Assembly (NCBI RefSeq): GCF_019668465.1
Contig: NZ_AP024828.1
Coordinates: 3,410,001-3,474,000 of the forward strand
Direction: 5' to 3'
Origin: Mycobacterium senriense
GTDB lineage: Bacteria; Actinomycetota; Actinomycetes; Mycobacteriales; Mycobacteriaceae
DNA length: 64,000 nucleotides
The position numbers and the translations under genes were made by a program. The notes beneath the pieces are model-generated. The model saw only the letters and a list, made by a program, of their open reading frames with translations, was not told the origin of the DNA and did not search any database. Of the stretch, positions 3,387 through 25,559 are shown piece after piece (the stretch's first letter is position 1; every line of letters starts with the position of its first letter).

Positions 3387-5009
3387 TCAATCATCGGCCA
3401 GCGCGTCGACCGGTGACGCCAGCCGGGTGGGACGCTCGTGCCCGCGCAGGGTCACGGTGTCGCCCAAAGACCAACGCGCCCGCTCGTTTTCACTTGCACG
3501 CTCGATCGCGTCGGCCGTTGCGAGCATTCGGCTCGGGTACGACTTGGCCAGCTCGCACAGTCGTGCCGCCTCGTTGACCGGTTCACCGATCACCGTGTAC
3601 TCGAAACGTTCCCTGGCGCCGACGTTTCCGGCGACGGCTTGACCCGCCGCCACACCGATGCCGGCCGAGAGCTCGGACATTTCATTGGCCAGTCGGTCGG
3701 TAATGCAGCGGGCGGCGGCCAGCGCCTCGTCCTCCGGAGAATCGAGATGGTTCGGCGCACCGAAGATGGCCAGGGACGCATCGCCTTCGAACTTGTTGAC
3801 CAGTCCGCGGTGGCGGTCCACTTCCTCGACGACGATGGCGAAGAACTGGTTGAGCACTTTGACGACTTCGGCCGGGGGCTTGTTGGTCACCAACTGCGTG
3901 GACCCGACGATGTCGATGAAGACGACGGCCACATGGCGTTCCTCGCCGCCCAGCTTCGGCATCTCGCGTTCGGCCGCCAGAGCCACCTCGCGGCCGACAT
4001 GGCGGCCGAAAAGATCGCGCACCCGTTCGCGCTCCCGCAGGCCGTCGACCATGGCGTTGAAACCGCGCTGCAGCTCGCCGAGTTCGGTGCCGTCGAATAC
4101 CACCAAATCGCCGCGCAGGTCGCCCCTCTCGACTCGCTGCAGCGCCGCCCGCACGACTCGCACCGGCGTCGCGGTCAGCCAGGCCAGGATCCACATCAGG
4201 GTGCAGCCGAAAATCAGCGCCGCCGACGACACGATCAGCACACCGACCGCGAACTGGGTCTCGGTGAGATTGTTCAGCCATATCTCGAACAGCGCCAGGA
4301 GCGCGATGCCGATGACGGGAACGCCCGAACCGAGAAACCACACCGTCATCGTTCGGCCCATGATCCCCGACGCCAGCCGCCGCGGCGGCGGACCCGCCTC
4401 GAGCGCCTGAGCCGCCACCGGACGCAGCGCGAACTCGGCGAGCAGATAACTGCCGGTGGCCACTAGAACGCCGCAGAAGCTCACCCCGACCAGGAAACGG
4501 GGGATGAACATCGTGTTGACCAGGCCGTAGAGGACGGAATAAAGCACCGCTCCGGTTCCCCACAAGACGAGGTCGACCACCGCGATTCGCCACGGGGCGA
4601 TGAACGTGTTGCGTTCATCCTCGGCAGTCGGGGTGCGCTCCTCGATCGCCCAGCGCAACGCCAGGACGGTCCTGCGGGTGATCCAAAAGGTGCCCACCGT
4701 CAGCGCCAGGACGATGTAGGCCGGTGAAACCCCGAAGGTGAGCCACGCCGGCGCGTCGTCGAAGATGCTTGGTACCGGGATGGCGACGATTACCAGGATC
4801 AGCCCGGCGGCGATCCCGATCAGGTTCGCCCCCAGGACCAGAACGGTCATGATGATCTGGATGCGTATCCGGCGCCGGCCCTGGCTTTCCGATACCCGGC
4901 CGAGCAGCAGGGAGCCGTACGCCGGCGTCGCCGGCAGACGGCCGCTCTGACGGGTGATCCGCTCGAGCACCCGGCCTATTCGCTGTGCCACGGACTGGTG
5001 GGCCGACAT
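3387..5009 (-). CDS. Membrane class III adenylate cyclase with HAMP domain (Rv1318c-Rv1320c family)
   Basis: 540 residues: six hydrophobic segments (roughly 51-78, 96-118, 141-163, 172-195, 222-244, 255-280), a HAMP linker (about 280-332) and a C-terminal class III cyclase domain. The metal-binding aspartates are visible as FIDIVGST (D366) and [10 protein letters not shown] (D410), the adenine-selecting Lys probably as K406, and the transition-state pair as VNEAAR (N479, R483). The catalytic set is therefore complete and cAMP synthesis is expected. H37Rv carries three adjacent paralogues (Rv1318c, Rv1319c, Rv1320c); only one is present here, directly before the divergent nucS. Confidence 0.9.
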
Positions 5010-5054
5010 GGTGGCGTCAGCCTAATTTGTCGGCCACGCTCTAAGGTGAATCGG

Positions 5055-13439: not shown

Positions 13440-16082
13440 GTGAAAGCCCTCCGCCGGTTTACCGTCCGTGCTCACCTTCCGGAGCGTCTGACCGCGCTGG
13501 ACCAGCTGTCGACCAACCTGCGTTGGTCGTGGGACGAACCCACCCAGGAGCTTTTCGCGACCATCGACCCCGAGCTCTGGGAACGGTGCGGCAGCGATCC
13601 GGTGGCGTTGCTGGGCGCGGTGAAACCGGCGCGGCTCGACGAGCTGGCGATGGATGAGGCCTTCCTGGACCGGCTCGACACGCTGACCGCCGATCTGAAC
13701 GATTACCTGAGCCGCCCGTTGTGGTACCAGCAGAGGCAGGAGCAGGGCGCCGAAATGCCGGCCGCGATCGCCTACTTCTCGATGGAGTTCGGCATCGCCG
13801 AAGTGTTGCCCAACTACTCCGGTGGCTTGGGAATCCTGGCCGGCGACCACCTGAAGTCCGCATCGGATCTGGGCGTGCCGCTGGTGGCGGTGGGGCTCTA
13901 CTACCGGTCGGGCTACTTCCGTCAGTCACTTACCGCCGATGGCTGGCAGAACGAGACCTACCCGTCGCTGGACCCGCAGGGTCTGCCGTTGCGGCTGTTG
14001 ACCGATGCGACCGGCGAGCCCGCCCTGGTCGAGTTGATGCTGCCCGACTCCGCGCAGCTGCACGCCCGGATCTGGGTCGCGCAGGTGGGCCGGGTTCCGC
14101 TGTTGTTGCTGGATTCCGACGTCCCGGAGAACGAGCACGATCTGCGTGGCGTCACTGACCGCCTGTACGGGGGCGACCAGGAACACCGGATGAGGCAGGA
14201 AATCCTGGCCGGCATCGGCGGGATAAGGGCGATCCGTGCTTTCACCGACATCCACGGCCTGCCCGCACCCGAGGTGTTCCACATGAACGAGGGCCACGCG
14301 GGTTTCCTCGGAGCGGAACGCATCCGCGAGCTGATGACCGGTCCGGGATTGGACTTCGACACGGCGCTGACCGTGGTGCGCTCCAGCACGGTGTTCACCA
14401 CCCACACCCCGGTGCCGGCCGGCATCGACCGGTTTCCCATCGAGATGGTGCGGCTGTATTTCGACGACCACGCCGGCGATCAGACGGGGCCCGGCGAGAA
14501 GGCCGCGACATCCGATGGCACGCCCGTGTTGCTGCCGGGGGTGCCGACGGCCCGCATCCTGGCCCTCGGCGCCGAGGACGACCCCACCAAGTTCAACATG
14601 GCGCACATGGGGCTGCGGCTCGCCCAGCGGGCCAACGGTGTGTCGTCGCTGCACGGCCGGGTCAGCCGGTCGATGTTCAACGAACTGTGGCCCGGCTTCG
14701 ACGCGAATGAGGTGCCGATCGGCTCGATTACCAACGGAGTTCACGCGCGCACGTGGGCGGCCCCGCAATGGCTGCAGCTGGGTCGTGAGCTGGCCGGGTC
14801 GGATTCGTTCAGCGATCCGGGGGTTTGGCTGCGCCTCAAGCAGGTCGACGCGGGCCACCTGTGGTGGATCCGCTCGCAGCTGAGGTCCCTGCTCGTGGAC
14901 GACGTCCGGCGGCGGCTACGCCGCTCCTGGCTGGAACGGGGCGCCTCGGACGCCGAATTGGGTTGGATCGCAACGGCATTCGATCCAGAGGTGCTGACCA
15001 TCGGGTTCGCTCGGCGGGTGCCGACCTACAAGCGCCTGACGCTGATGCTGCGTGATCCGGATCGGCTGGAACAGCTGCTGCTCGACTCGGAACGGCCGAT
15101 CCAGTTGATCGTCGCCGGCAAGTCGCACCCGGCCGACGACGGGGGCAAGGCGCTGATCCAGCAGGTGGTGCGTTTTGCCGACCGGCCCGAAGTGCGCCAC
15201 CGCATCGCGTTCCTGCCCGACTACGACATGTCCATGGCGCGGCTGCTGTACTGGGGCTGCGACGTCTGGCTGAACAACCCGCTGCGACCGTTGGAGGCTT
15301 GCGGCACTTCGGGAATGAAGAGTGCACTCAACGGCGGGCTGAACCTGTCCATCCGCGACGGCTGGTGGGACGAATGGTACGACGGCGAAAACGGTTGGGA
15401 GATACCGTCTGCCGACGGCCTGGCCGACGAGCACCGGCGCGACGACCTGGAGTCCAGCGGGCTCTACACCCTGCTGGAAGAGGCCGTGGCGCCGAAGTTC
15501 TACGAACGCGACGAACACGGCGTGCCGCCGCGCTGGATCGAAATGGTGCGCCACACGGTGCAGACGCTGGGTCCCAAAGTGTTGGCGTCACGCATGGTGC
15601 GCGACTACGTCGAGCAGTACTACACGCCCGCCGCGCAGTCGCTGCGCAAGACGATCGCACCCGCCGACGACGCGGCGGGCGCCGGCGAGTTCGGCGCGGC
15701 CCGTGAGCTGGCCGCCTACCGCCGGCGCGCCCAGCAGGCCTGGCCCAAGATCGTCATCACCGACGTGGACAGCACCGGCCTGCCAGACAGCCCCGTGCTC
15801 GGCTCCAAGCTGACCCTGACCGCGACCGTGCAGCTGGCCGGCCTGGCGCCCGACGAGGTCACCGTTCAGGCGGTGGTGGGCCGCGTCGACTCCAGCGATG
15901 CGCTGCTGGAGCCGATCACCGTCGAGATGTCCTACACCGGCACCGCCGAGGGCGGCAACCAGGTCTTCTCGACGACGACCCCGCTGCCGCTGGCGGGATC
16001 GGTCGGCTACACCGTGCGCGTGCTGCCGCACAACCCGATGCTGGCGGCCAGCAATGAGCTCGGCCTGGTCACGCTGGCCTAA
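13440..16082 (+). CDS. glgP: Alpha-glucan (glycogen) phosphorylase GlgP
   Basis: 880 residues, orthologue of Rv1328. Phosphorolyses alpha-1,4-glucan to glucose-1-phosphate, a PLP enzyme of the short actinobacterial phosphorylase type. The PLP lysine is K627 in EACGTSGMKSALNGG. The N-terminal region contains YFSMEFGIAEVLPNYSGGLG. About 150 C-terminal residues form an added beta-rich domain beyond the catalytic fold. GTG start at 13440 with AGGTAGGA just upstream. Divergent from glgE, placing synthesis and breakdown of glucan around one promoter region. Confidence 0.93.
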   Translation: MKALRRFTVRAHLPERLTALDQLSTNLRWSWDEPTQELFATIDPELWERCGSDPVALLGAVKPARLDELAMDEAFLDRLDTLTADLNDYLSRPLWYQQRQEQGAEMPAAIAYFSMEFGIAEVLPNYSGGLGILAGDHLKSASDLGVPLVAVGLYYRSGYFRQSLTADGWQNETYPSLDPQGLPLRLLTDATGEPALVELMLPDSAQLHARIWVAQVGRVPLLLLDSDVPENEHDLRGVTDRLYGGDQEHRMRQEILAGIGGIRAIRAFTDIHGLPAPEVFHMNEGHAGFLGAERIRELMTGPGLDFDTALTVVRSSTVFTTHTPVPAGIDRFPIEMVRLYFDDHAGDQTGPGEKAATSDGTPVLLPGVPTARILALGAEDDPTKFNMAHMGLRLAQRANGVSSLHGRVSRSMFNELWPGFDANEVPIGSITNGVHARTWAAPQWLQLGRELAGSDSFSDPGVWLRLKQVDAGHLWWIRSQLRSLLVDDVRRRLRRSWLERGASDAELGWIATAFDPEVLTIGFARRVPTYKRLTLMLRDPDRLEQLLLDSERPIQLIVAGKSHPADDGGKALIQQVVRFADRPEVRHRIAFLPDYDMSMARLLYWGCDVWLNNPLRPLEACGTSGMKSALNGGLNLSIRDGWWDEWYDGENGWEIPSADGLADEHRRDDLESSGLYTLLEEAVAPKFYERDEHGVPPRWIEMVRHTVQTLGPKVLASRMVRDYVEQYYTPAAQSLRKTIAPADDAAGAGEFGAARELAAYRRRAQQAWPKIVITDVDSTGLPDSPVLGSKLTLTATVQLAGLAPDEVTVQAVVGRVDSSDALLEPITVEMSYTGTAEGGNQVFSTTTPLPLAGSVGYTVRVLPHNPMLAASNELGLVTLA

Positions 16083-16367
16083 GTGCTCGACAACGATCCA
16101 AAGCGGATGAAGCGCTGTCAACCTAATGTATTGGACTCGCGCGCAATAGCTTTCGCGGCAAGCCGCGGCCGCTCTGTTCGACGGCTTTGAGGGCAACGTG
16201 AGGTATCTAGTGGTGCCGGCCGGACCGTTGCCGTGCTCAGCCGCGGATCGGGCGCCGGTTGGTAATTTTCACAACAGTAATTAGTAGGTTTTCGAACCCA
16301 CCACGGGCGGTTGAGCGACAATTGCGACGCGGTCAGAGTCGCAACAGCCTCACAGTGAAGGTGCGCC
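16083..16367. other. Intergenic region after glgP
   Basis: 285 bases without a supportable gene. It includes a relatively AT-rich patch around 16260-16300 that could hold the promoter for the downstream frame, and GAAGG ahead of the ATG at 16368. No transposase, tRNA or clear terminator was seen. Confidence 0.5.
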
Positions 16368-16706
16368 ATGACGCACAGAATTGCTGTCACAGCCCGGACT
16401 CCCCCGAGGCGCGCAGTCGAGCGCGCGACGACGAATGGGGATGGCCGAGCCGGCAGAGTCGTCGATCCAGACACCGGCTTGGGCCGCAGACGTCTCCGGA
16501 CGGGCCGGCCCCCCGCCCCGCTCACTCGACGCCGACAACCCTCCCCGACGGCGGTGCTGCTGGTCGCGGCTTTCGGCGCCTTTCTCGCATTCCTCGACTC
16601 CACGATCGTCAACATCGCCTTCCCGGCCATCCAGCGGTACTTCCACAGCAGCGACATCAGCAGCCTGTCGTGGGTGCCGCGGATCATGGAGGTGGTCGGT
16701 GGCTGA
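16368..16706 (+). pseudogene. Truncated EmrB/QacA-type MFS exporter, N-terminal stump
   Basis: A 112-residue frame with a good start (GAAGG 7 bases before ATG). Its C-terminal part reads as TM1 of a DHA2 multidrug exporter: VLLVAAFGAFLAFLDSTIVNIA followed by FPAIQRYF and SLSWV. In intact family members SWV leads into TM2 and some 400 more residues. Here homology stops after SWV and the frame ends nine residues later (PRIMEVVGG). The stop overlaps the start of the first DegV gene by 8 bases. The remainder of the transporter is not in the window, so this looks like a deletion or rearrangement scar at the edge of the DegV array. Confidence 0.7.
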
Positions 16707-17613
16707 CGTTGCGGTGGTTACCGACAGCACTTGCTGCCTACCGAATGCGCTCATCGAGAGCTTCGACATCACGGTGTTGTCGCAGTATTTCGACGTTGGT
16801 GGTGGCGCCTCGCCCGAGGGTGGACACGAGCTGCCTGGCCGCGGGCTGCGGGAGTCGGAGTTCGACGGTGATTTCGAAGGGTTCTTTGCGGAACTGGACG
16901 CGTCGAAGACCGTCGCGACGACGTCGCCGCCCACCATCGAGGATTTTGTTGTGGCCTATGAACGGCTGTTGCAGCAGCACAGCGCTGTCGTCTCGGTGCT
17001 GATCTCCTCGAGCCTTAATCCGACCTGCTCGATGGCTCGCGAAGCAGCCGCACGGCTGAACTCTGAGGGCCGTGGTGAGCGGGTGGTGGTGATCGACTCG
17101 GCCGGCGTGGCCGGCCACCTGGGTGTGCAGGCGCTGGCGGGCGCGCGGGCGGCCGCTGCGGGGGAAGACACCTCGGGGGTCATCGCGGCGGTGCGCCGGG
17201 CGCGCCAGGAGGTCAGGCAGTGGTTCGTTGTCGACACGCTTGAGTATCTGAGGCGCGGCGGCCGGATTGGCGGAGCCGCCGCATGGCTCGGATCGGCGCT
17301 CGATCTCAAGCCGATCTTGATGATCGAATCGGAACTCAAGGCCGTTGAACGCGTGCGCACCCGCAGGCGTGCTATCGAGCGGTTGGTCGAGCTGATGCGA
17401 CAGCGCCGCGCGGTAGGCGCCGACAGGTGGTTCGTCACCCACACCTATGCGCACGAGGACGCGAAGCGGCTGGCCGAGCGTCTCGCCGAACTCTTCGGCA
17501 CCGAGCCGTTGTTCATCTCCGAGGTCGGACCCGTAATCGCAACACACACCGGTCCGGGGACGGTGTCGGCCGGTGGTCTTCCGGGAGCAGCGTTGGGCGG
17601 TGTGTATGGCTGA
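16699..17613 (+). CDS. DegV family protein, array copy 1
   Basis: 304 residues. DegV/FakB proteins bind a fatty acid and present its carboxyl group to the kinase FakA. Visible family features: VVTDST at 6-11, TTSPPT, SSSLNPT, DSAG, LEYLRRGGRIGGAAAWLG, LDLKPIL and the C-terminal ATHTGPGT with H283, equivalent to the ligand-contacting His of staphylococcal FakB proteins. It carries a short insertion near residue 40 (SPEGGHELPGRG) shared only with copy 4. GTG start preceded by GGAGG with a 6-base spacer, the strongest ribosome-binding site of the array. First gene of a probable six-gene operon ending in the large kinase/cyclase. Confidence 0.88.
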   Translation: MADVAVVTDSTCCLPNALIESFDITVLSQYFDVGGGASPEGGHELPGRGLRESEFDGDFEGFFAELDASKTVATTSPPTIEDFVVAYERLLQQHSAVVSVLISSSLNPTCSMAREAAARLNSEGRGERVVVIDSAGVAGHLGVQALAGARAAAAGEDTSGVIAAVRRARQEVRQWFVVDTLEYLRRGGRIGGAAAWLGSALDLKPILMIESELKAVERVRTRRRAIERLVELMRQRRAVGADRWFVTHTYAHEDAKRLAERLAELFGTEPLFISEVGPVIATHTGPGTVSAGGLPGAALGGVYG

Positions 17614-18487
17614 CGTTGCGGTGGTTACCGACAGCACGGCCTCGCTGCCGCCTGCGCTCGCGGACAGCCTGGACATCACGCTGGTTTCGCTCTATTACGA
17701 CCTCGGCGGCGGTTGGCTGCGCGAGTCGGAGTTCGATGGGGATTTCGGCAGATTCTTTGCCGAACTCGACGCATCGAAAAGCGTTGCGAAGACGTCGCCC
17801 CCGAGCGTCGAGGATTTCGTCGCCGTCTTTGAGCGGCTGCTGCAGCAGCACAGCGCCGTCGTCGCGGTCCTGATCTCCTCGGGTCTTTCGGAGACTTGCT
17901 CGATGACTCGACAGGCAGCCGCACGGCTGGAATCTGAGGGCCGCGGTGGCGAGCGGGTGGTGGTGATCGACTCGGCCGGTGCGGCCGGCCAATTGGGTCT
18001 TCAGGCGATCGCGGGCGCGCGGGCGGCCGCCGCGGGGGAAGACGCGACCGGGGTCACCGCGGCGACGCGCCGGGCACGCCAGGAAGTCCGGCAGTGGGTC
18101 GTTCTCGACACGCTTGAATATCTGCGCCGCGGCGGGCGGATCGGCGGCGCCGCCGCATGGCTCGGATCAGCGCTCGACCTCAAGCCGATATTGATGATCG
18201 AATCACAGTTCAGGGCCGTCGAACGCGTGCGCACGCGCAAGCGCGCCATCGAGCGGTTGATCGAGTTGATGCGACAGCGGCGCGGGGTGGGCGCCGATCG
18301 ATGGTTCATCCAGCACGCGGATGCGCTCGAAGACGCCAAGAGGTTGGCCGAGCGCCTCGCCGAAATCTTGGGCACAGAGCCGGAGTTCATCTCGGAGCTC
18401 AGCCCGGTACTCGCAACGCACACCGGTCCGGGGACGCTGGTGGCCGGAGGTCTTTCCGGCACGGCGTTGGGGGGTACGTATGGCTGA
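17606..18487 (+). CDS. DegV family protein, array copy 2
   Basis: 293 residues, MADVAVVTDST start shared with its neighbours. All fatty-acid-binding motifs are retained: KTSPPS, SSGLSET, DSAG, RRGGRIGG, LDLKPIL and LATHTGPG with T271/H272. It lacks the SPxGGHELPGRG insertion of copies 1 and 4. Its ATG lies within the last 8 bases of copy 1 (ATGGCTGA), so translation is probably coupled by termination-reinitiation. Predicted cytosolic lipid carrier; specificity unknown. Confidence 0.87.
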   Translation: MADVAVVTDSTASLPPALADSLDITLVSLYYDLGGGWLRESEFDGDFGRFFAELDASKSVAKTSPPSVEDFVAVFERLLQQHSAVVAVLISSGLSETCSMTRQAAARLESEGRGGERVVVIDSAGAAGQLGLQAIAGARAAAAGEDATGVTAATRRARQEVRQWVVLDTLEYLRRGGRIGGAAAWLGSALDLKPILMIESQFRAVERVRTRKRAIERLIELMRQRRGVGADRWFIQHADALEDAKRLAERLAEILGTEPEFISELSPVLATHTGPGTLVAGGLSGTALGGTYG

Positions 18488-19361
18488 CGTCGCAGTAGTT
18501 ACCGACAGCACAGCCTGTCTGCCGGATGCGCTCGTCGACAGCCTGGGCATCACGGTGTTGCCGCTGTATTACGACGTCGGTGGCGGCTGGGTGCTCGAGT
18601 CCGAGTTCGATGGTGACTTCAGACGGTTCTATGCGCAACTGGACGCATCGAAGAGCGTCGCGACGACGTCGCCGCCTACCGTCGAGGATTTCGTGGGGGT
18701 CTTTGGTCGGCTGCTGCAGCAGGAGAGCGCCGTAGTCGCGGTACTGCTCTCCTCTCACTTTTCCGAGACCTGCTCCATCGCTCGGCAGGCAGCCGCACGG
18801 CTGGGGTCCGAGGGCCGCGGTGGCGACCGGGTGGCGGTGATCGACTCGGCCGGCACGGCTGGCCACATGGGTGTTCAGGCAGTAGCGGCCGCGCGGGCGG
18901 CCGCTGCGGGGGAAGACGCCTCGGGGGTGACCGCGGCGGCGCGCCGGGCGCGCCAGGAGGTCATGCAGTGGTTCGTCCTCGACACGCTTGAGTATCTGAG
19001 GCGCAGCGGCCGGATCGGTGGCGCGGCCGCATGGATAGGATCGGCGCTCGACCTCAAGCCGATCTTGATGGTCGGGTCGGAGTTCACGGCTGTCGAACGC
19101 GTGCGCACGCGCAGGCGGGCAATCGAGCGGTTGGTCGAGCTGATGCGGCAGCGCCGCGCGGTGGGCGCCGATCGATGGTTCGTCCAACACACGGATGCGC
19201 ACGAGGACGCGAAGCGGCTGGCCGAGCGTCTCGCCGAGCTGTTCGGCATCGAGCCGGAGTTCATCTCAGAGCTCGGACCGGTATGCGCAAGGCAAGTCGG
19301 TCCGGGGTTGTTGTCGGACGGAGGTCTTTCCGGCACGGCGCTAGAGGGTACATATGGCTGA
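18480..19361 (+). CDS. DegV family protein, array copy 3, altered ligand motif
   Basis: 293 residues, overlapping copy 2 by 8 bases. Fold motifs are conserved (VVTDST, TTSPPT, RRSGRIGG, LDLKPIL), but the C-terminal ATHTGPG has become ARQVGPG: T271 is Arg and the conserved His at 272 is Gln. SSHFSET replaces SSGLSET. Since the His helps hold the fatty-acid carboxylate in FakB proteins, this copy may bind a different ligand or none. No frameshift or stop, so it is diverged rather than broken. Confidence 0.85.
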   Translation: MADVAVVTDSTACLPDALVDSLGITVLPLYYDVGGGWVLESEFDGDFRRFYAQLDASKSVATTSPPTVEDFVGVFGRLLQQESAVVAVLLSSHFSETCSIARQAAARLGSEGRGGDRVAVIDSAGTAGHMGVQAVAAARAAAAGEDASGVTAAARRARQEVMQWFVLDTLEYLRRSGRIGGAAAWIGSALDLKPILMVGSEFTAVERVRTRRRAIERLVELMRQRRAVGADRWFVQHTDAHEDAKRLAERLAELFGIEPEFISELGPVCARQVGPGLLSDGGLSGTALEGTYG

Positions 19362-20256
19362 CGTCGCAGTGGTTACCGATAGCACCTGCTCGCTGCCGCG
19401 GGCGCTCGTCGAGAGCTTGGACATCACGGTGGTGTCGCTGTATTACGACATCACTGGTGCCGAGTCGCCCACCGGCGGTCACGAGTTGCCTGGCCGGGGG
19501 GAGCGCGAGTCGGACTTCGACGGCGATTGGGCACGGTTCTTTGCCGAACTGGACGCGTCGAAGAGTGTGGCGACCACGTCGCCGCCCACCGTCGAGGATT
19601 TCGTCGCGGCCTACGAACGGCTGTTGCATCAGCACAGCGCCGTCGTCGCGGTCCTGCTCGGCACGAACCTGTCCCCGACCTTCTCGTTTGGTCAGCAGGC
19701 GGCCGCAGAAGTGGACAGCGATCGGGTGACGGTGGTCGACTCGGCCGGCACGGCCGGGCACCTGGGTGTTCAGGCACTGGCGGCGGCGCGGGCGGCCGCC
19801 GCGGGCTGTGACGCCCCGGCGGTGGCCGCGGCAGCGCGCCGGGCGCGCCAGGAGGTCAGGCAATGGGTGCTTGTCGACACGCTCGAGTATCTGCGACGCG
19901 GCGGCCGGGTCGGTACCGCGGCCGCATGGATCGGCTCTGCCCTCGACCTCAAGCCGATCTTGATGATCGAGTCAGAGATGAAGGCCGTCGAGCGCGTGCG
20001 CACGTTCAAGCGCGGGGTCGAGCGGTTGGTTGAGCTGATGCGACAGCGCCGCGCGGTGGGTGCCGATCGATGGTTCGTCCAACACGCCTATGCGCACGAG
20101 GACGCCCGCCGGCTGGCAGAGCGTCTCGCCGGGCTGTTCGGCACTGAGCCGGAGTTCATCTCCGAGGTCGGGCCGGTACTCGCAACTCATACCGGTCCGG
20201 GCATGGTGACGGTCGGCGGTCTTCCCGGCACGGCGTTGGAGGGTGCGTATGGCTGA
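19354..20256 (+). CDS. DegV family protein, array copy 4
   Basis: 300 residues, overlapping copy 3 by 8 bases. Like copy 1 it has the insertion near residue 42 (SPTGGHELPGRG), and ATHTGPG with H279 is intact. It differs by GTNLSPTFSFGQ in place of SSGLSETCSMTR and by a shorter loop before DRVTVVDSAG. The shared insertion suggests copies 1 and 4 are closer to each other than to their immediate neighbours, so the array probably arose by duplication of blocks or by later gene conversion. Confidence 0.87.
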   Translation: MADVAVVTDSTCSLPRALVESLDITVVSLYYDITGAESPTGGHELPGRGERESDFDGDWARFFAELDASKSVATTSPPTVEDFVAAYERLLHQHSAVVAVLLGTNLSPTFSFGQQAAAEVDSDRVTVVDSAGTAGHLGVQALAAARAAAAGCDAPAVAAAARRARQEVRQWVLVDTLEYLRRGGRVGTAAAWIGSALDLKPILMIESEMKAVERVRTFKRGVERLVELMRQRRAVGADRWFVQHAYAHEDARRLAERLAGLFGTEPEFISEVGPVLATHTGPGMVTVGGLPGTALEGAYG

Positions 20257-21115
20257 TGTCGCGGTGGTTACCGACAGCACCGGCTACCTGCCGCGTGCGC
20301 TCGTCGACAAGTTCGAAATCACGGTTGTCTCACAGTATTACGACGTCGGTGGCGGCCCGCTGCGCGAGTTGGACTTCGACGGTGATTTCGCACGGTTCTA
20401 CGCCGCACTGGACGCGTCGAAGACCGTCGCGACGACTTCGCCGCCAACTGTCGAGGATTTCGCGGTGGTCTTTGAACGGTTGCTGCAGCAGCACACTGCA
20501 GTCGTTGCGGTCCTGATCTCCTCGGGCGTTTCCGACACTTGCTCCATGGCCCGACAGGCGGCTGCCCAGTTGGAAGCTGCGGGCGGTGACGAGCGGATCA
20601 CGGTGATCGACTCGGCCGGCTTCGGTGGACACTTGGGGCTCCAGGCGATGGCGGCCGCGCGCGCCGCGTTGTGCGGAGCCGACCCGCAGGGCGTCATCGA
20701 GCGCGTACGTCAAGCGCGCCAAGAGATTAAAGGCTGGGCTCTGGTGGACACGCTCGAGTACCTCCGCCGAAGCAACAGGGTGGGCGCTGTGGCCGCATGG
20801 GTCGGATCGGCGCTCGACCTCAAACCGATCCTGACGATCGAATCAGAGCTCAAGGCCGGCGAGCGCGTGCGCACGCGTAGGCGCGGGATCGAGCGGCTGA
20901 TCGAACTGATGCGCCAGCACCGCGCGGCGGGCGCCGACCGGTGGTTCCTGCAACAGGCGTATGCGCACGATGATGCGAAACAGCTGGCCGAACGTCTCGC
21001 CGAACTGCTCGGCACCGAGCCGGAATTCGTCACGGACGTCGGACCGGTAGTCGCAACGCACATCGGACCGGGCACGCTGGTGGTCGGCGGACTTCCAGGG
21101 GCGGCTTTGAGGTAA
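20249..21115 (+). CDS. DegV family protein, array copy 5
   Basis: 288 residues, the most diverged in its middle and C-terminus (RRSNRVGAVAAWVG, LKPILTIESELKAGERV, ATHIGPG with H271, ending GGLPGAALR without the VYG/TYG tail of the others). The shorter end fits its position as last copy, since no further DegV start overlaps it. It stops 4 bases before the ATG of the kinase/ATPase/cyclase gene; the GAGGT that serves as ribosome-binding site for that gene lies inside its last codons. Confidence 0.86.
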   Translation: MADVAVVTDSTGYLPRALVDKFEITVVSQYYDVGGGPLRELDFDGDFARFYAALDASKTVATTSPPTVEDFAVVFERLLQQHTAVVAVLISSGVSDTCSMARQAAAQLEAAGGDERITVIDSAGFGGHLGLQAMAAARAALCGADPQGVIERVRQARQEIKGWALVDTLEYLRRSNRVGAVAAWVGSALDLKPILTIESELKAGERVRTRRRGIERLIELMRQHRAAGADRWFLQQAYAHDDAKQLAERLAELLGTEPEFVTDVGPVVATHIGPGTLVVGGLPGAALR

Positions 21116-21119
21116 CCGG

Positions 21120-24100
21120 ATGAGTACCGCCGCGAGTGTCGAATGCAGTAAGTGCGGGGCTGGGAACCGGCCTCAGGCGAAGTTCTGCAACAGCTGTGGT
21201 GCCCCGATTGTGGTCGAGGTCGCGTGCCCCGGCTGTGGCGCGCGCCAACCGGGCTCACAGCGCTTCTGCGACGAGTGCGGAACCATGCTGGGTGCCCAGT
21301 CCATGGCGTCGCAGCCGGCGGCACCGCCGGTTCCCCGGACACTGGCAGAAGGGCGTTACACGTTGGGCCGTTTGCTCGGCGAAGGTGCCGGCAAGCGGGT
21401 GTACCTGGCAACCGACACCCGCCTGCAGCGCGACGTGGCCGCAGCAGTGTTCAAGGCCGGCGGCACGGACGAGGCCGCCATGCGCCGCGCGCGCCGGGAA
21501 GCGGAGGCGATGGCGAAGCTTGGCGAGCATCCGAACATCGTCAACGTGTACGACTTCGGCGAGGAGGCCGGGCAGCTATACCTGATCAGCCAGTACATGG
21601 CCGGCGGCGACCTTTACGGTCTGTTGTCAGACGCGGTGGATCACCGGCTCGCCGTCGAAGAGGTGGTCCGGATCGGGCAGGACATCGCCAGTGGGCTGGC
21701 GCACGCGCACGGGCAGGGAGTGGTGCATCGCGACGTCAAACCGCAGAATGTGTGGCTGGCGCCCGACGGCACCGCCAAGATCGGAGATTTCGGCCTCGCG
21801 GTCGCGGAAGGCTCAACGCGTGTGACGGCCGTGGGGACGGTAATCGGAACGGTCGCCTACATGCCGCCCGAACAAGCTCTCGGTCGCGGCTCTGACGCCC
21901 GTTCGGACATCTACTCCCTTGGCGCTTTGCTGTACGAATTGCTCTGCGGGATAACACCTTTCGCGGGCGAGTCGCCTGCTGCCATTGTCTCCCAGCATGT
22001 TTCGACCGCTCCGGTCGCGCCAAGCGGGCATCGCTCCGGCATTCCCGCACCGCTCGACCAGTTGCTGCTGAGGATGTTGGCGAAGTCGCCCGAGGCGCGT
22101 CCCCAGCAAGCAACCGAGGTTCGCGATGCGCTTGGGGCGATCGCCGCCGCGGTCGCGAGTGGCGATGGCGCGACTCGGGATATGGCGGCGCTCGACCGCA
22201 TCACCGACAGCACGTTCCTCGGGCGAGAACGAGAAACGCACGAGCTCCGCGCCGCGATCGATGACGCCATGGGCCGCCGCGGCCGCACCGTGCTGATAAG
22301 TGGAGAGTCGGGAATCGGCAAGACACGCCTCGCGTCTGAGGCCGCGGCATACGCCGCCCTTCGGGGCGCGCAGGTTCTATGGGGCCGCTGCTATGCGGGC
22401 GCGGGTGCTCCTGCCTATTGGCCGTGGGTGCAGGTGATCCGCGACTATGCACGTGGTCACGATGCCGAAACGGTGGCTTCTGACCTGGGCTCAGGTGCGT
22501 TCGAGATCGCCCAGATCGTCTCCGAGATACGCGAGCGTATGCCGGAGATCCCCGAATCGCCGCCGCTGGACGCCGAACAGGCGCGCTTTCGGTTGTTCGA
22601 CTCGGTGTCGCGGTTTCTGATCGGCGCCGCCGACCGCCAGCCACTCGCGATCTTCCTCGAAGACCTGCAACAGGCCGACCACCCCTCGTTGATGCTGTTG
22701 GCGTTCGTCGTGCGCGAGCTGTCCCACTCGCGCGTGTTCCTGCTGGGCACTTATCGAGACGACGAGCTTCCCGACAACCATTCCTTGAACGAGGTACTCA
22801 CCGGGCTCAGCAAGGAACGCGGATACGCACGCGTCAAGCTGCGGGGGCTCTCCGATCAACATGTCAAGGCGATGCTCGAAGCGGTACTGCAGCAACCGCT
22901 GGAGCGACGAAGTGAACTCGCGCTTGCAGACGCCGTTTGCCGCGAGTCGGAGGGCAATCCGTACTTCACCGAAGAGATCGTCCGCCATCTGATCGACTCT
23001 GAGGTGCTCGACTGGCGCGACGGCCGATGGGTCACCAACATCCAGGATGGCGAGGAGCTCGGCATCCCTCGGGGTGTCCACGAAGTGGTCTCCCGTCGGT
23101 TGGAGAAGCTGCCGACCGAAACACTCGAGCTGCTTTCGACCGCGGCGGTGATCGGCCGCGAGTTCGATCTGCCGATCCTGACGCACGTCAGCGGGCTGGA
23201 GGCGGACGTCGCGTTTGCGCGGATGCAGCCGGCCCTGGACGGGGCGATCGTGCGGCAGACCGCCGGCGAGCCGGGCCGGTACGGCTTCGCGCACGGCGCG
23301 ACTCGCGACGCGCTGTATGACGATCTGCCCGCGCTACGGCGCTCCCAGCTGCACATCGCCGCCGGCGAGGCGATCGAGGAGCTCTACGAGGAGCGAATCG
23401 AGTCTCATCTGTCTGCAATCGCATTCCACTTCGCGAAGGCCGCTCCATACGGTGACGCCGCGAAGGCGGCCGACTATGCGTGGTGGGCGGGGGAACGCGC
23501 GGCGGCAACGTATGCCTACGAAGACGCGGTCAGCCTTTACGCGACGGCGCTCCGGCTCTTCGACACGATCTCGGAGGTGGTACCGCAGCGCCGATGCGAT
23601 CTGCTGCTGGCGCTGGGGGACGCGCGGTGGCGGGCCGGCGAAGCCGAAGGCGCTCGTAAGACATTCGGCGAGGCTGCGACCATCGCGCGCGAGTTGGCGC
23701 TCAACGACCACTTTGCCCGTGCCGCCCTCGGATACGGCGGCGGCCCGGGCGGCTTCTCGATCACCGATCGTGCCGATGAACAGCTGGTGGCGTTGTTGGA
23801 GGAAGCGCTCGAAGTGCTGCCGGCACGTGACAGCGCGCTCAGGGTGACGGTGCTTGCCCGGCTGGCCCTCGAGCTCCGCCGCAAGGGCGCGCTGGCGGAA
23901 GCCGACCGGACCAGCGCGCAGGCCATCGAGATGGCCGAACGCGTCGGCGACACGAAGATCTTGTTGCTGGCCATGCATAGCCGGCAGTGGTCAACCTTGG
24001 GCCCCGACCGGACCGAGGACGCCATCGCGTCCGGCGAGGAGATGGCGCGGCTCGCCCGGATCGTCGGTGACCGGGACATGGAGTTCGAGGGCCATCAGCT

Positions 24101-25559
24101 GCGCCTGATCGCGCTTGCCCAGCTCGGCGACTTCCGGGCGGTAGATCAAGAGATCGCGGCGTGTGACCGGCTGGCCGGCGAGCTACACCAGCCGCGCTAC
24201 CTCTGGCAGACGGCGGTGTTCCGCACGATGCGGGCATTGATGCAGGGTCGCTACAAGGAGTCGGAGCGTCTCGCGCAGACGGCGCTGTCGATCGGCCAGC
24301 GTGCCGAGCCGGAGGTAGCGGCAGTGGTCTTTGGCGCGCACTCGTTTCTGACCCGGCTCGCGGATGGCACTCTGGAACAGCTGCGCGACGTCGGCCGCGA
24401 AGCCGCCGCGCGCTACGGGCAGGCGTGGCCGGCATCGTACGTGTGGCTGCTGACCGAGATCGGCCAGCTCGATGAGGCTCGCGCCAAATTCGCGGAGCTC
24501 ACGGCCGACGGCTTCGAGGCGCTCCGACGCGGCAGTGACTGGTTGACTTCGGTCTGCGTGCTCTCGATGGCGTCCATCCCGATCGGTGATCGAGAAGCCG
24601 CAAGCGCACTCTACGAGCTGCTGGTGCCCTACGAAGACCGCTGCACTCTGTTTCTGGCCGGAGCCGGGTGCCTCGGCTCCAACCACACGTTCCTCGCCTT
24701 CGCCGCTGCGGCGGCCGACCGCCATGAGGACGCCGTGCACCACTTCGACCTGGCCCTCGCGCGCAATGCGGAGATCGGCAGCGATTACGTGACGCCCCGG
24801 GTCTGCTACGAGTACGCACGCATGCTGCTCAGCACTTCTGAGCCGGGGATTCGGGACAAGGCGATGGGCCTGATCGACCGGGGACTTGACCTCGCGCAGC
24901 GCAACAGCATGCGCGTCGAGGTCGAGCGACTCGTGCAGCTGCGCCGAGGGAGCGAGGAGCGCCCCCAACAGCAGCTCGGGTGGTCGGTGATGGACGACGT
25001 CGCGGAGTCCGTCGAGGCGGACCGGCCCGACCTCAGCAGGGTGGCCGCTCCCGACGGAACGGTCACGATCATGTTCTCGGACATCGAAGGTTCGACGGTG
25101 CTCGCCGAGCAGCTGGGCGACGAGCGCTGGCTGAGGCTTTTGCACCGCCACAATGCCGTCATTCGTCGTCAGCTGGCCGCACACAGTGGCTTCGAGGTCA
25201 AATCGCAGGGCGACGGTTTCATGGTCGCCTTCGCCAGCGCTCGCAACGCGCTGCGCTGCGCGATCGCGATCCAGCGCGACTTGGCGGCCTATCGCGATCA
25301 GTCCGGCAGCCAGGTGTTGCGCGTCCGGATCGGACTGCACACCGGAGAGGTGATCCGCGAGCAGGAGGACTTCTTCGGGCACACCGTGATCCTCGCGGCG
25401 AGGATCGGGGCGAAAGCCAACGGCAACGGGATCCTTGTGTCGGCGGTGCTGCGCGGACTGGTAGCCGGCAGTCACGAGTTCCGATTCGGCGAATCGCGCG
25501 ACGAACAACTCAAGGGGCTGCAGGATCCCCAGCGCATCTATGAGGTCTGCTGGGAATAG
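21120..25559 (+). CDS. Zinc-ribbon / Ser-Thr kinase / STAND ATPase / TPR / class III cyclase fusion protein
   Basis: 1479 residues. Two zinc ribbons open the protein (C9, C12, C23, C26 and C36, C39, C50, C53). A Ser/Thr kinase domain follows (about 80-345), with glycine loop GEGAGKRV, catalytic HRDVKPQN (203-210) and DFG (223-225); the VAIK lysine is displaced (VAAAVFK). Next is an AAA/STAND-like ATPase with Walker A GESGIGKT (about 395-402) and a Walker B-like IFLEDLQQAD (about 510-520), then a long helical TPR-like region. The C-terminal class III cyclase domain (about 1310-1479) keeps metal ligands D1321 and D1365 and R1428, but Ile1424 replaces the usual Asn. Four bases after the DegV array, so probably its output protein. 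Domains are sure; role is inferred. Confidence 0.88.
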   Translation: MSTAASVECSKCGAGNRPQAKFCNSCGAPIVVEVACPGCGARQPGSQRFCDECGTMLGAQSMASQPAAPPVPRTLAEGRYTLGRLLGEGAGKRVYLATDTRLQRDVAAAVFKAGGTDEAAMRRARREAEAMAKLGEHPNIVNVYDFGEEAGQLYLISQYMAGGDLYGLLSDAVDHRLAVEEVVRIGQDIASGLAHAHGQGVVHRDVKPQNVWLAPDGTAKIGDFGLAVAEGSTRVTAVGTVIGTVAYMPPEQALGRGSDARSDIYSLGALLYELLCGITPFAGESPAAIVSQHVSTAPVAPSGHRSGIPAPLDQLLLRMLAKSPEARPQQATEVRDALGAIAAAVASGDGATRDMAALDRITDSTFLGRERETHELRAAIDDAMGRRGRTVLISGESGIGKTRLASEAAAYAALRGAQVLWGRCYAGAGAPAYWPWVQVIRDYARGHDAETVASDLGSGAFEIAQIVSEIRERMPEIPESPPLDAEQARFRLFDSVSRFLIGAADRQPLAIFLEDLQQADHPSLMLLAFVVRELSHSRVFLLGTYRDDELPDNHSLNEVLTGLSKERGYARVKLRGLSDQHVKAMLEAVLQQPLERRSELALADAVCRESEGNPYFTEEIVRHLIDSEVLDWRDGRWVTNIQDGEELGIPRGVHEVVSRRLEKLPTETLELLSTAAVIGREFDLPILTHVSGLEADVAFARMQPALDGAIVRQTAGEPGRYGFAHGATRDALYDDLPALRRSQLHIAAGEAIEELYEERIESHLSAIAFHFAKAAPYGDAAKAADYAWWAGERAAATYAYEDAVSLYATALRLFDTISEVVPQRRCDLLLALGDARWRAGEAEGARKTFGEAATIARELALNDHFARAALGYGGGPGGFSITDRADEQLVALLEEALEVLPARDSALRVTVLARLALELRRKGALAEADRTSAQAIEMAERVGDTKILLLAMHSRQWSTLGPDRTEDAIASGEEMARLARIVGDRDMEFEGHQLRLIALAQLGDFRAVDQEIAACDRLAGELHQPRYLWQTAVFRTMRALMQGRYKESERLAQTALSIGQRAEPEVAAVVFGAHSFLTRLADGTLEQLRDVGREAAARYGQAWPASYVWLLTEIGQLDEARAKFAELTADGFEALRRGSDWLTSVCVLSMASIPIGDREAASALYELLVPYEDRCTLFLAGAGCLGSNHTFLAFAAAAADRHEDAVHHFDLALARNAEIGSDYVTPRVCYEYARMLLSTSEPGIRDKAMGLIDRGLDLAQRNSMRVEVERLVQLRRGSEERPQQQLGWSVMDDVAESVEADRPDLSRVAAPDGTVTIMFSDIEGSTVLAEQLGDERWLRLLHRHNAVIRRQLAAHSGFEVKSQGDGFMVAFASARNALRCAIAIQRDLAAYRDQSGSQVLRVRIGLHTGEVIREQEDFFGHTVILAARIGAKANGNGILVSAVLRGLVAGSHEFRFGESRDEQLKGLQDPQRIYEVCWE

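What the first reader, a model, noticed from the sequence alone, without database searches (positions are those of the whole stretch)
16699..21115. Five tandem DegV (FakB-like) paralogues in one operon
Five full-length, intact DegV genes lie head to tail between glgP and dinG, where H37Rv has none. DegV proteins are cytosolic fatty-acid carriers. A five-member array suggests carriers tuned to different acyl chains, or a dose effect. I know of no described mycobacterial system of this form.
Basis: partly seen in the sequence, partly recalled or inferred. Interest (0 to 1): 0.8.

Follow-up and report, generated by a model that had tools for sequence, protein, structure and literature searches.

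The report
Fatty-acid carrier array beside signalling gene
Five related fatty-acid-carrier genes stand in a row in a mycobacterial chromosome, just before a kinase/cyclase signalling gene; relatives carry one to four, and the old copies differ at positions that may shape the fat-binding pocket, so this looks like an evolving set of lipid-reading proteins rather than simple repetition.

Summary
Confirmed: five intact DegV genes (16699-21115) lie head to tail between glgP and dinG, each overlapping the next by 8 nt. A 1479-aa kinase/AAA/cyclase gene follows directly. In 8 of 12 array loci an MFS-cNMP-patatin fusion gene precedes the array; the window keeps only an in-frame deletion remnant. DegV and kinase/cyclase stand together in 12 of 12 loci, with 1 to 5 DegV each; in the genus sample 8 of 248 genomes have the pair. 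Copies 2, 4 and 5 belong to supported orthologue clades under purifying selection: old diversification, not recent dosage. The predicted fold is FakB's. Equivalents of FakB1 pocket positions 121 and 158 differ between clades, weak support for different acyl specificities. Copies 1 and 3 lost a recalled carboxylate-binding residue. A FakA-like gene is present; PlsX and PlsY were not found, so the textbook FakA-FakB-PlsX-PlsY route looks incomplete. Best explanation: acyl-diversified carriers serving a lipid-turnover or lipid-sensing cassette under kinase/cyclase control. Nothing was tested biochemically, and every literature call failed.

The parts
16368..16706 (+). In-frame remnant (112 aa) of the MFS-cNMP-patatin gene: keeps about 100 N-terminal residues and the last residues; its stop overlaps the GTG start of DegV1
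   Evidence: 93% identity over residues 1-103 to the 1112-aa gene of L063; translation and junction; no full copy among the matches in the own genome
16699..17613 (+). DegV copy 1 (304 aa); 12-aa loop insert; recalled Ser-93 equivalent is Asn; no match above 80% identity among the 32 array genes
17606..18487 (+). DegV copy 2 (293 aa); member of the D2 clade
18480..19361 (+). DegV copy 3 (293 aa); carboxylate His equivalent is Gln; no match above 80% identity among the 32 array genes
19354..20256 (+). DegV copy 4 (300 aa); member of the penultimate-position D4 clade; 12-aa loop insert
20249..21115 (+). DegV copy 5 (288 aa); member of the last-position D5 clade; AlphaFold2 model mean pLDDT 90.6
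21120..25559 (+). KinCyc: zinc ribbon, Ser/Thr protein kinase, AAA_16 with weak TPR, class III nucleotidyl cyclase (1479 aa)
   Evidence: Pfam and NCBIfam; cyclase domain closest to Ma1120; catalytic motifs

Best explanation
The five genes encode FakB-type cytosolic fatty-acid carriers that diversified to hold different acyl chains and are made together with a kinase/cyclase that controls the process. In the fuller cassette of relatives KinCyc would make a cyclic nucleotide. That would bind the cNMP domain of a membrane protein joining an EfpA-like transporter to a patatin-type lipase, which would release fatty acids from membrane lipid. The DegV proteins would pick these up and present them to the chromosomal FakA-like kinase or to another acyl-activating enzyme, and possibly report the ligand back to KinCyc. 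In the window's strain the transporter-lipase is deleted, so the carriers must work with KinCyc and with fatty acids from elsewhere. Shown: gene order, families, fold of copy 5, orthologous sublines, pocket-position differences, a FakA-like gene present, PlsX and PlsY not found. Inferred: lipid binding, acyl specificity, cyclic-nucleotide control, any contact between DegV and KinCyc or FakA, co-transcription.
For: DegV next to KinCyc in 12 of 12 array loci. The MFS-cNMP-patatin gene is directly upstream in 8 of 12, all three domains confirmed in 8 of 8. The 12 loci hold 32 array DegV, 1-5 per locus. Successive DegV overlap by 8 nt at all four junctions in the window and at 12 of 15 junctions in seven other loci. 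The array forms one clade with sublines D5 (9 rows, 100/99), D4 (7 rows, 99/98) and D2 (4 rows, 100/99). dN/dS is 0.14-0.22 within sublines. The model of copy 5 matches FakB1 loaded with palmitate, TM 0.82. FakB1 A121 equivalent: Ala in 4 of 4 D2, Val in 6 of 7 D4, Phe in 7 of 7 D5 tested; A158 equivalent: Gln 4 of 4, Gln 7 of 7, Gly 7 of 7; others solved FakB1 A121I, A158L and F263T mutants (PDB titles). A FakA-like C-terminal domain is in 20 of 20 genomes examined, and the own gene has Dak2, middle and C-terminal domains. MFS part closest to EfpA, E 2e-53. MFS-cNMP-patatin genes also stand beside another cyclase-AAA-TPR gene in 7 further loci, one cut by a contig end before any cyclase domain.
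Against: In the window the MFS-cNMP-patatin gene is deleted and no full copy was found elsewhere; 4 of 12 array loci lack it, so it is not essential to the DegV part. PlsX and PlsY were not found, so the fate of acyl-phosphate is unknown. The FakA-like gene is not linked to the array and scores far below the FakA equivalog cut-off (160 against 975 bits). Copies 1 and 3, and 4 of the other 27 array genes (two in 1164985.4, one each in G074 and G219), have changed a residue thought to hold the carboxylate. The pocket test is weak: P about 0.05, an 85% cut-off of my own choosing, two deeper D5 members left out that have Ala and Leu at the 121 equivalent, and the third probed position (263) does not separate the sublines at that cut-off. 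All five DegV lie far below the FakB1 equivalog cut-off (124-136 against 350 bits). The cyclase lacks the Asn before AAR that I recall as canonical, though its nearest solved relative Ma1120 does too.
Confidence: 0.42

Rival explanations
1. The DegV proteins are not carriers for metabolism but ligand-reading adaptors of KinCyc: each bound acyl chain alters the kinase or cyclase output, and the array is a set of interchangeable lipid-reading heads.
For: KinCyc is the constant partner (12 of 12 array loci), while the MFS-cNMP-patatin gene is missing or reduced to a remnant in 4 of 12; PlsX and PlsY were not found; copies without the carboxylate residue persist as intact ORFs; KinCyc has an AAA_16 domain and weak TPR and nSTAND3 matches, as sensor NTPases do.
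Against: No predicted or measured DegV-KinCyc contact; 1 of 13 KinCyc loci (L071) has no DegV beside it; a FakA-like gene that could use the carriers is present in all 8 array genomes examined.
Confidence: 0.25
2. The cassette is a second-messenger defence-like module: a sensor-type cyclase plus a cNMP-gated membrane lipase effector, with DegV as an accessory.
For: Patchy distribution (8 of 248), different places and both orientations in the glgP-dinG gap; GC3 0.77-0.82 against 0.85-0.91 in the five flanking genes; cNMP domain matches Pycsar effector models, E 2e-12, and the patatin region a phospholipase effector weakly, E 3e-6; the kinase domain matches PD-T4-6 defence-kinase models, E 7e-82, which may only reflect the kinase fold; transporter-lipase lost in-frame in two loci in different ways.
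Against: The PADLOC matches are domain-level; no cyclase model is among the 25 of 35 rows shown for KinCyc and none matches DegV; the cyclase domain is closest to Ma1120; several ordinary ORFs of the window also have GC3 of 0.73-0.82; the flanks were not scanned for defence genes.
Confidence: 0.13
3. Neutral or dosage-driven tandem duplication: copies arise by unequal recombination and carry no special function beyond more of the same protein.
For: Copy number varies 1-5 among relatives; third-position identity is patchy, a sign of recombination; copies 1 and 3 have no close orthologue and have lost a conserved residue.
Against: Copies 2, 4 and 5 are old lineages kept across species with dN/dS 0.14-0.22.
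Confidence: 0.2

Closest known systems
FakB1/FakB2/FakB3 fatty-acid carriers of Staphylococcus and Streptococcus (DegV family)
   Same: Same family, and copy 5 has the same predicted fold (TM 0.74-0.83 to the FakB chains listed); several carriers for different acids have a precedent: pneumococcal FakB1, B2 and B3 structures are loaded with saturated, mono- and polyunsaturated acids (PDB titles); Thr, Ser, His and Arg positions kept in 26 of 32 array genes
   Different: Five tandem paralogues directly before a kinase/cyclase; PlsX and PlsY not found; far below the FakB1 equivalog cut-off. That the known FakB genes are scattered is recalled.
EfpA (mycobacterial MFS transporter)
   Same: Closest solved structure to the MFS part of the upstream gene of relatives (8ufe, E 2e-53)
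   Different: Here fused to cNMP-binding and patatin domains, and deleted in the window
Rv3239c-type MFS-cNMP-patatin protein (recalled, no call)
   Same: Recalled domain order is the same
   Different: Recalled as having no DegV or kinase/cyclase beside it; not tested here
Ma1120 cyclase (of Mycobacterium avium, as I recall)
   Same: Closest solved relative of the KinCyc cyclase domain (4wp3, E 7e-43)
   Different: KinCyc carries zinc ribbon, kinase and AAA/TPR regions in front
Pycsar/CBASS signalling
   Same: Cyclase plus cyclic-nucleotide-binding membrane or phospholipase effector (weak domain matches)
   Different: Cyclase closest to Ma1120; no evidence of defence

Membership tests
DegV/EDD family (PF02645, TIGR00762) | Full-length match above curated cut-off | tested here: met
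   203-223 bits (cut-off 27) and 220-236 bits (cut-off 99.7), 5 of 5 copies
DegV/EDD family (PF02645, TIGR00762) | Two-domain fatty-acid-binding fold | tested here: met
   Model of copy 5 only, pLDDT 90.6; top hits 2dt8 (fatty-acid-binding DegV) and 5uto (FakB1) at TM 0.83 and 0.82
FakB1 equivalog (NF038249) | Score above the curated cut-off of 350 bits | tested here: not met
   124-136 bits
FakB-type carrier | Carboxylate-binding Thr, Ser, His and kinase-facing Arg (roles and numbering recalled) | tested here: inconclusive
   All present in copies 2, 4 and 5; Ser to Asn in copy 1, His to Gln in copy 3; 26 of 32 array genes keep all four
FakB-type carrier | Binds fatty acid and serves as substrate carrier for FakA | not testable with these tools
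   FakA-like gene present, unlinked; YloV subfamily cut-off met (474 against 396 bits), FakA equivalog cut-off not met (160 against 975)
FakA-FakB-PlsX-PlsY pathway | PlsX and PlsY present | tested here: not met
   0 matches in the own genome for PF02504 and PF02660; each search rings in 8 of 14 control genomes
Pycsar/CBASS defence | System-specific cyclase plus effector | tested here: inconclusive
   Weak effector-domain matches only; no cyclase model in the 25 of 35 rows shown for KinCyc; cyclase domain closest to Ma1120
FakB carriers with distinct ligands | Different acyl ligands per copy | not testable with these tools
   Only residue differences at pocket equivalents

The most novel reading that the evidence does not exclude
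The DegV array is a lineage-specific, expandable repertoire of lipid-reading proteins that feed a kinase/cyclase signalling hub: bacteria with it read several fatty acids at once and turn them into a cyclic-nucleotide or phosphorylation signal, independently of the FakA-PlsX-PlsY pathway.
Probability: 0.15. Interest if true: 0.85.

Novelty: new variant of a known kind. Interest (0 to 1): 0.6.

Why it matters
Mycobacteria live on lipids, yet what DegV and FakA-like proteins do in a genome where PlsX and PlsY were not found is open. A natural series of loci with 1 to 5 carriers, with and without the lipase gene, gives a ready comparison. If the copies bind different acids, this would be a carrier repertoire next to, and perhaps under, kinase/cyclase control: a link between fatty-acid handling and cyclic-nucleotide signalling that can be tested directly.

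Tried and rejected
Recent assembly or dosage array: rejected for copies 2, 4 and 5 by the tree and identities.

Plasmid origin: copy 3 has no close match in the plasmid collection (23 of 23 matching records below 60% identity). Phages were not searched.

CRP-like site in front of the operon: 11 matches with up to 2 mismatches in the window against 16.1 expected, none between 16083 and 25559. Sigma-70-like promoter: none found in 16050-21200.

Divergent second DegV genes in G013 and G123 (30-33% identity to the array): nothing else in the 16 kb around either resembles the cassette genes.

KinCyc homologue outside the genus (G602, 38%): no DegV or MFS-cNMP-patatin gene within the 18 kb taken.

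The tree used 32 array and 5 of 15 canonical DegV; the two divergent ones were left out. The subline-position test used 18 of 32 array genes, and its 85% cut-off was my choice. In one search the genomes with a single match were not each classified as canonical or array type; in G074 the single match must, by inference, be the array gene seen, so no canonical DegV was seen there.

Full report
What is there. Five complete DegV genes occupy 16699-21115 on the + strand, each sharing 8 nt with the next. They are 67-80% identical to each other and 37-39% identical to the genome's only other DegV match, a canonical single copy. The host genome is held in 3 contigs of 5.83 Mb. Among the seven named genomes found by the array search, those labelled Mycobacterium colombiense and M. 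vulneris are closest at glgP, 97-98% identity.

The operon. Four bases after copy 5 begins a 1479-aa gene with zinc ribbon, protein kinase, AAA_16 with weak TPR, and class III cyclase domains. In 13 homologues checked, the window's included, the kinase HRD and DFG motifs and the first cyclase metal motif are present in 13 and a Walker A motif in 11. In front of the array the window has a 112-aa ORF; in relatives this is the N-terminus of a protein of about 1110 aa with MFS, cNMP-binding and patatin domains. The window's ORF keeps about 100 N-terminal residues and the C-terminal end, in frame. L067 shows a different in-frame deletion of the same gene. The window's genome shows no other full copy. 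That these genes form one transcript is inferred from overlaps and spacing.

Distribution. In 248 genus genomes the full-length kinase/cyclase is in 8, and all 8 carry array-type DegV. With the named genomes, 12 distinct loci carry 32 array DegV: 5 (window), 4, 4, 3, 3, 3, 3, 2, 2, 1, 1, 1. The kinase/cyclase is beside the array in 12 of 12; the MFS-cNMP-patatin gene is intact in 8, a remnant in 2 (window, L067) and not seen in 2 (G064, G159). One further kinase/cyclase (L071) has no DegV. The cassette lies between glgP and dinG in both orientations (compare L077 with L069 and L075), and apparently elsewhere in G104, G159 and G064, where no dinG was seen in the stretch taken; in G064 a piece of glgP lies next to it. 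In 351 family genomes of 31 genera, array-type DegV at E 1e-48 was found only in the window's genome and one congener. MFS-cNMP-patatin genes also occur beside a different cyclase-AAA-TPR gene in seven loci, one of them cut by a contig end before any cyclase domain (domains of one).

History of the copies. The array is one clade against canonical DegV (100/100). Copies 2, 4 and 5 fall into sublines with orthologues in other species: D2 (4 rows, 100/99), D4 (7, 99/98) and D5 (9, 100/99), the last two tied to the penultimate and last position. Copies 1 and 3 have no match above 80%. Within sublines dN/dS is 0.14-0.22; between window copies it is 0.26-0.49 (counting method, approximate). Third-position identity is patchy along the genes, a sign of recombination.

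Function of the DegV proteins. The model of copy 5 (pLDDT 90.6) matches a fatty-acid-binding DegV (2dt8) and palmitate-loaded FakB1 (5uto) with TM 0.83 and 0.82. The Thr, Ser, His and Arg that I recall as carboxylate- and kinase-facing are kept in copies 2, 4 and 5; copy 1 has Asn for Ser, copy 3 Gln for His; 26 of 32 array genes keep all four. PDB titles show that others mutated FakB1 at A121, A158 and F263. At the A121 equivalent D2 has Ala (4 of 4), D4 Val (6 of 7; the window has Thr) and D5 Phe (7 of 7 tested; two deeper D5 members have Ala and Leu); at the A158 equivalent D2 and D4 have Gln (4 of 4, 7 of 7) and D5 Gly (9 of 9); at the F263 equivalent D2 has Leu, D4 Val, D5 Val or Ile. Only 38 of 288 columns separate the sublines at my cut-off and 3 separate all three, one of them the A121 equivalent; two of the three probed positions being among the 38 has P about 0.05. 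This is a lead, not proof, of acyl tuning.

Pathway. A FakA-like C-terminal domain is present in 20 of 20 genomes examined, 8 with and 12 without the kinase/cyclase. The own gene carries Dak2, middle and C-terminal domains, lies next to recG, meets the YloV subfamily cut-off and falls far below the FakA equivalog cut-off. PlsX and PlsY were not found, while each search rings in 8 of 14 control genomes. So if acyl-phosphate is made, its user is unknown.

Judgement. Observation confirmed; acyl-tuned carriers plausible; simple dose unlikely for three of five copies. What looks new is the setting: a variable carrier set tied to a kinase/cyclase, in most relatives with a cNMP-binding transporter-lipase.

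Noticed in passing
window 3390-5021 (-): A HAMP-domain class III cyclase lies about 11 kb from the array; in G064 a HAMP cyclase, with a similar-looking ORF after it, stands beside the moved cassette (L070).
   Followed up: partly
L072, L080, L081, L082, L083, L084, L085: A second, DegV-free cassette: a cyclase-AAA-TPR gene directly before an MFS-cNMP-patatin gene (in L085 cut before any cyclase domain), in at least two loci with a separate cNMP-patatin gene nearby.
   Followed up: partly
L054, L055; L101, L102 (G013, G123): A divergent second DegV, 30-33% identical to the array, with no cassette gene in 16 kb.
   Followed up: partly
G075, G089, G134, G086: DegV matches come only in fragments, in G075 with a stop inside; those of G086 lie at contig ends. 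DegV seems broken or split in these genomes.
   Followed up: no
L070 9453-9617: A 55-aa piece of the glgP C-terminus lies next to the moved cassette, with a transposase ORF on the other side.
   Followed up: no
window DegV1 and DegV4; the other D4-clade genes; NS7390_1, 1465703_1, 1164985.4_1, G159_1: A 12-residue loop insert (SPxGGHExPGRG type) near residue 38 marks some copies and not others.
   Followed up: no
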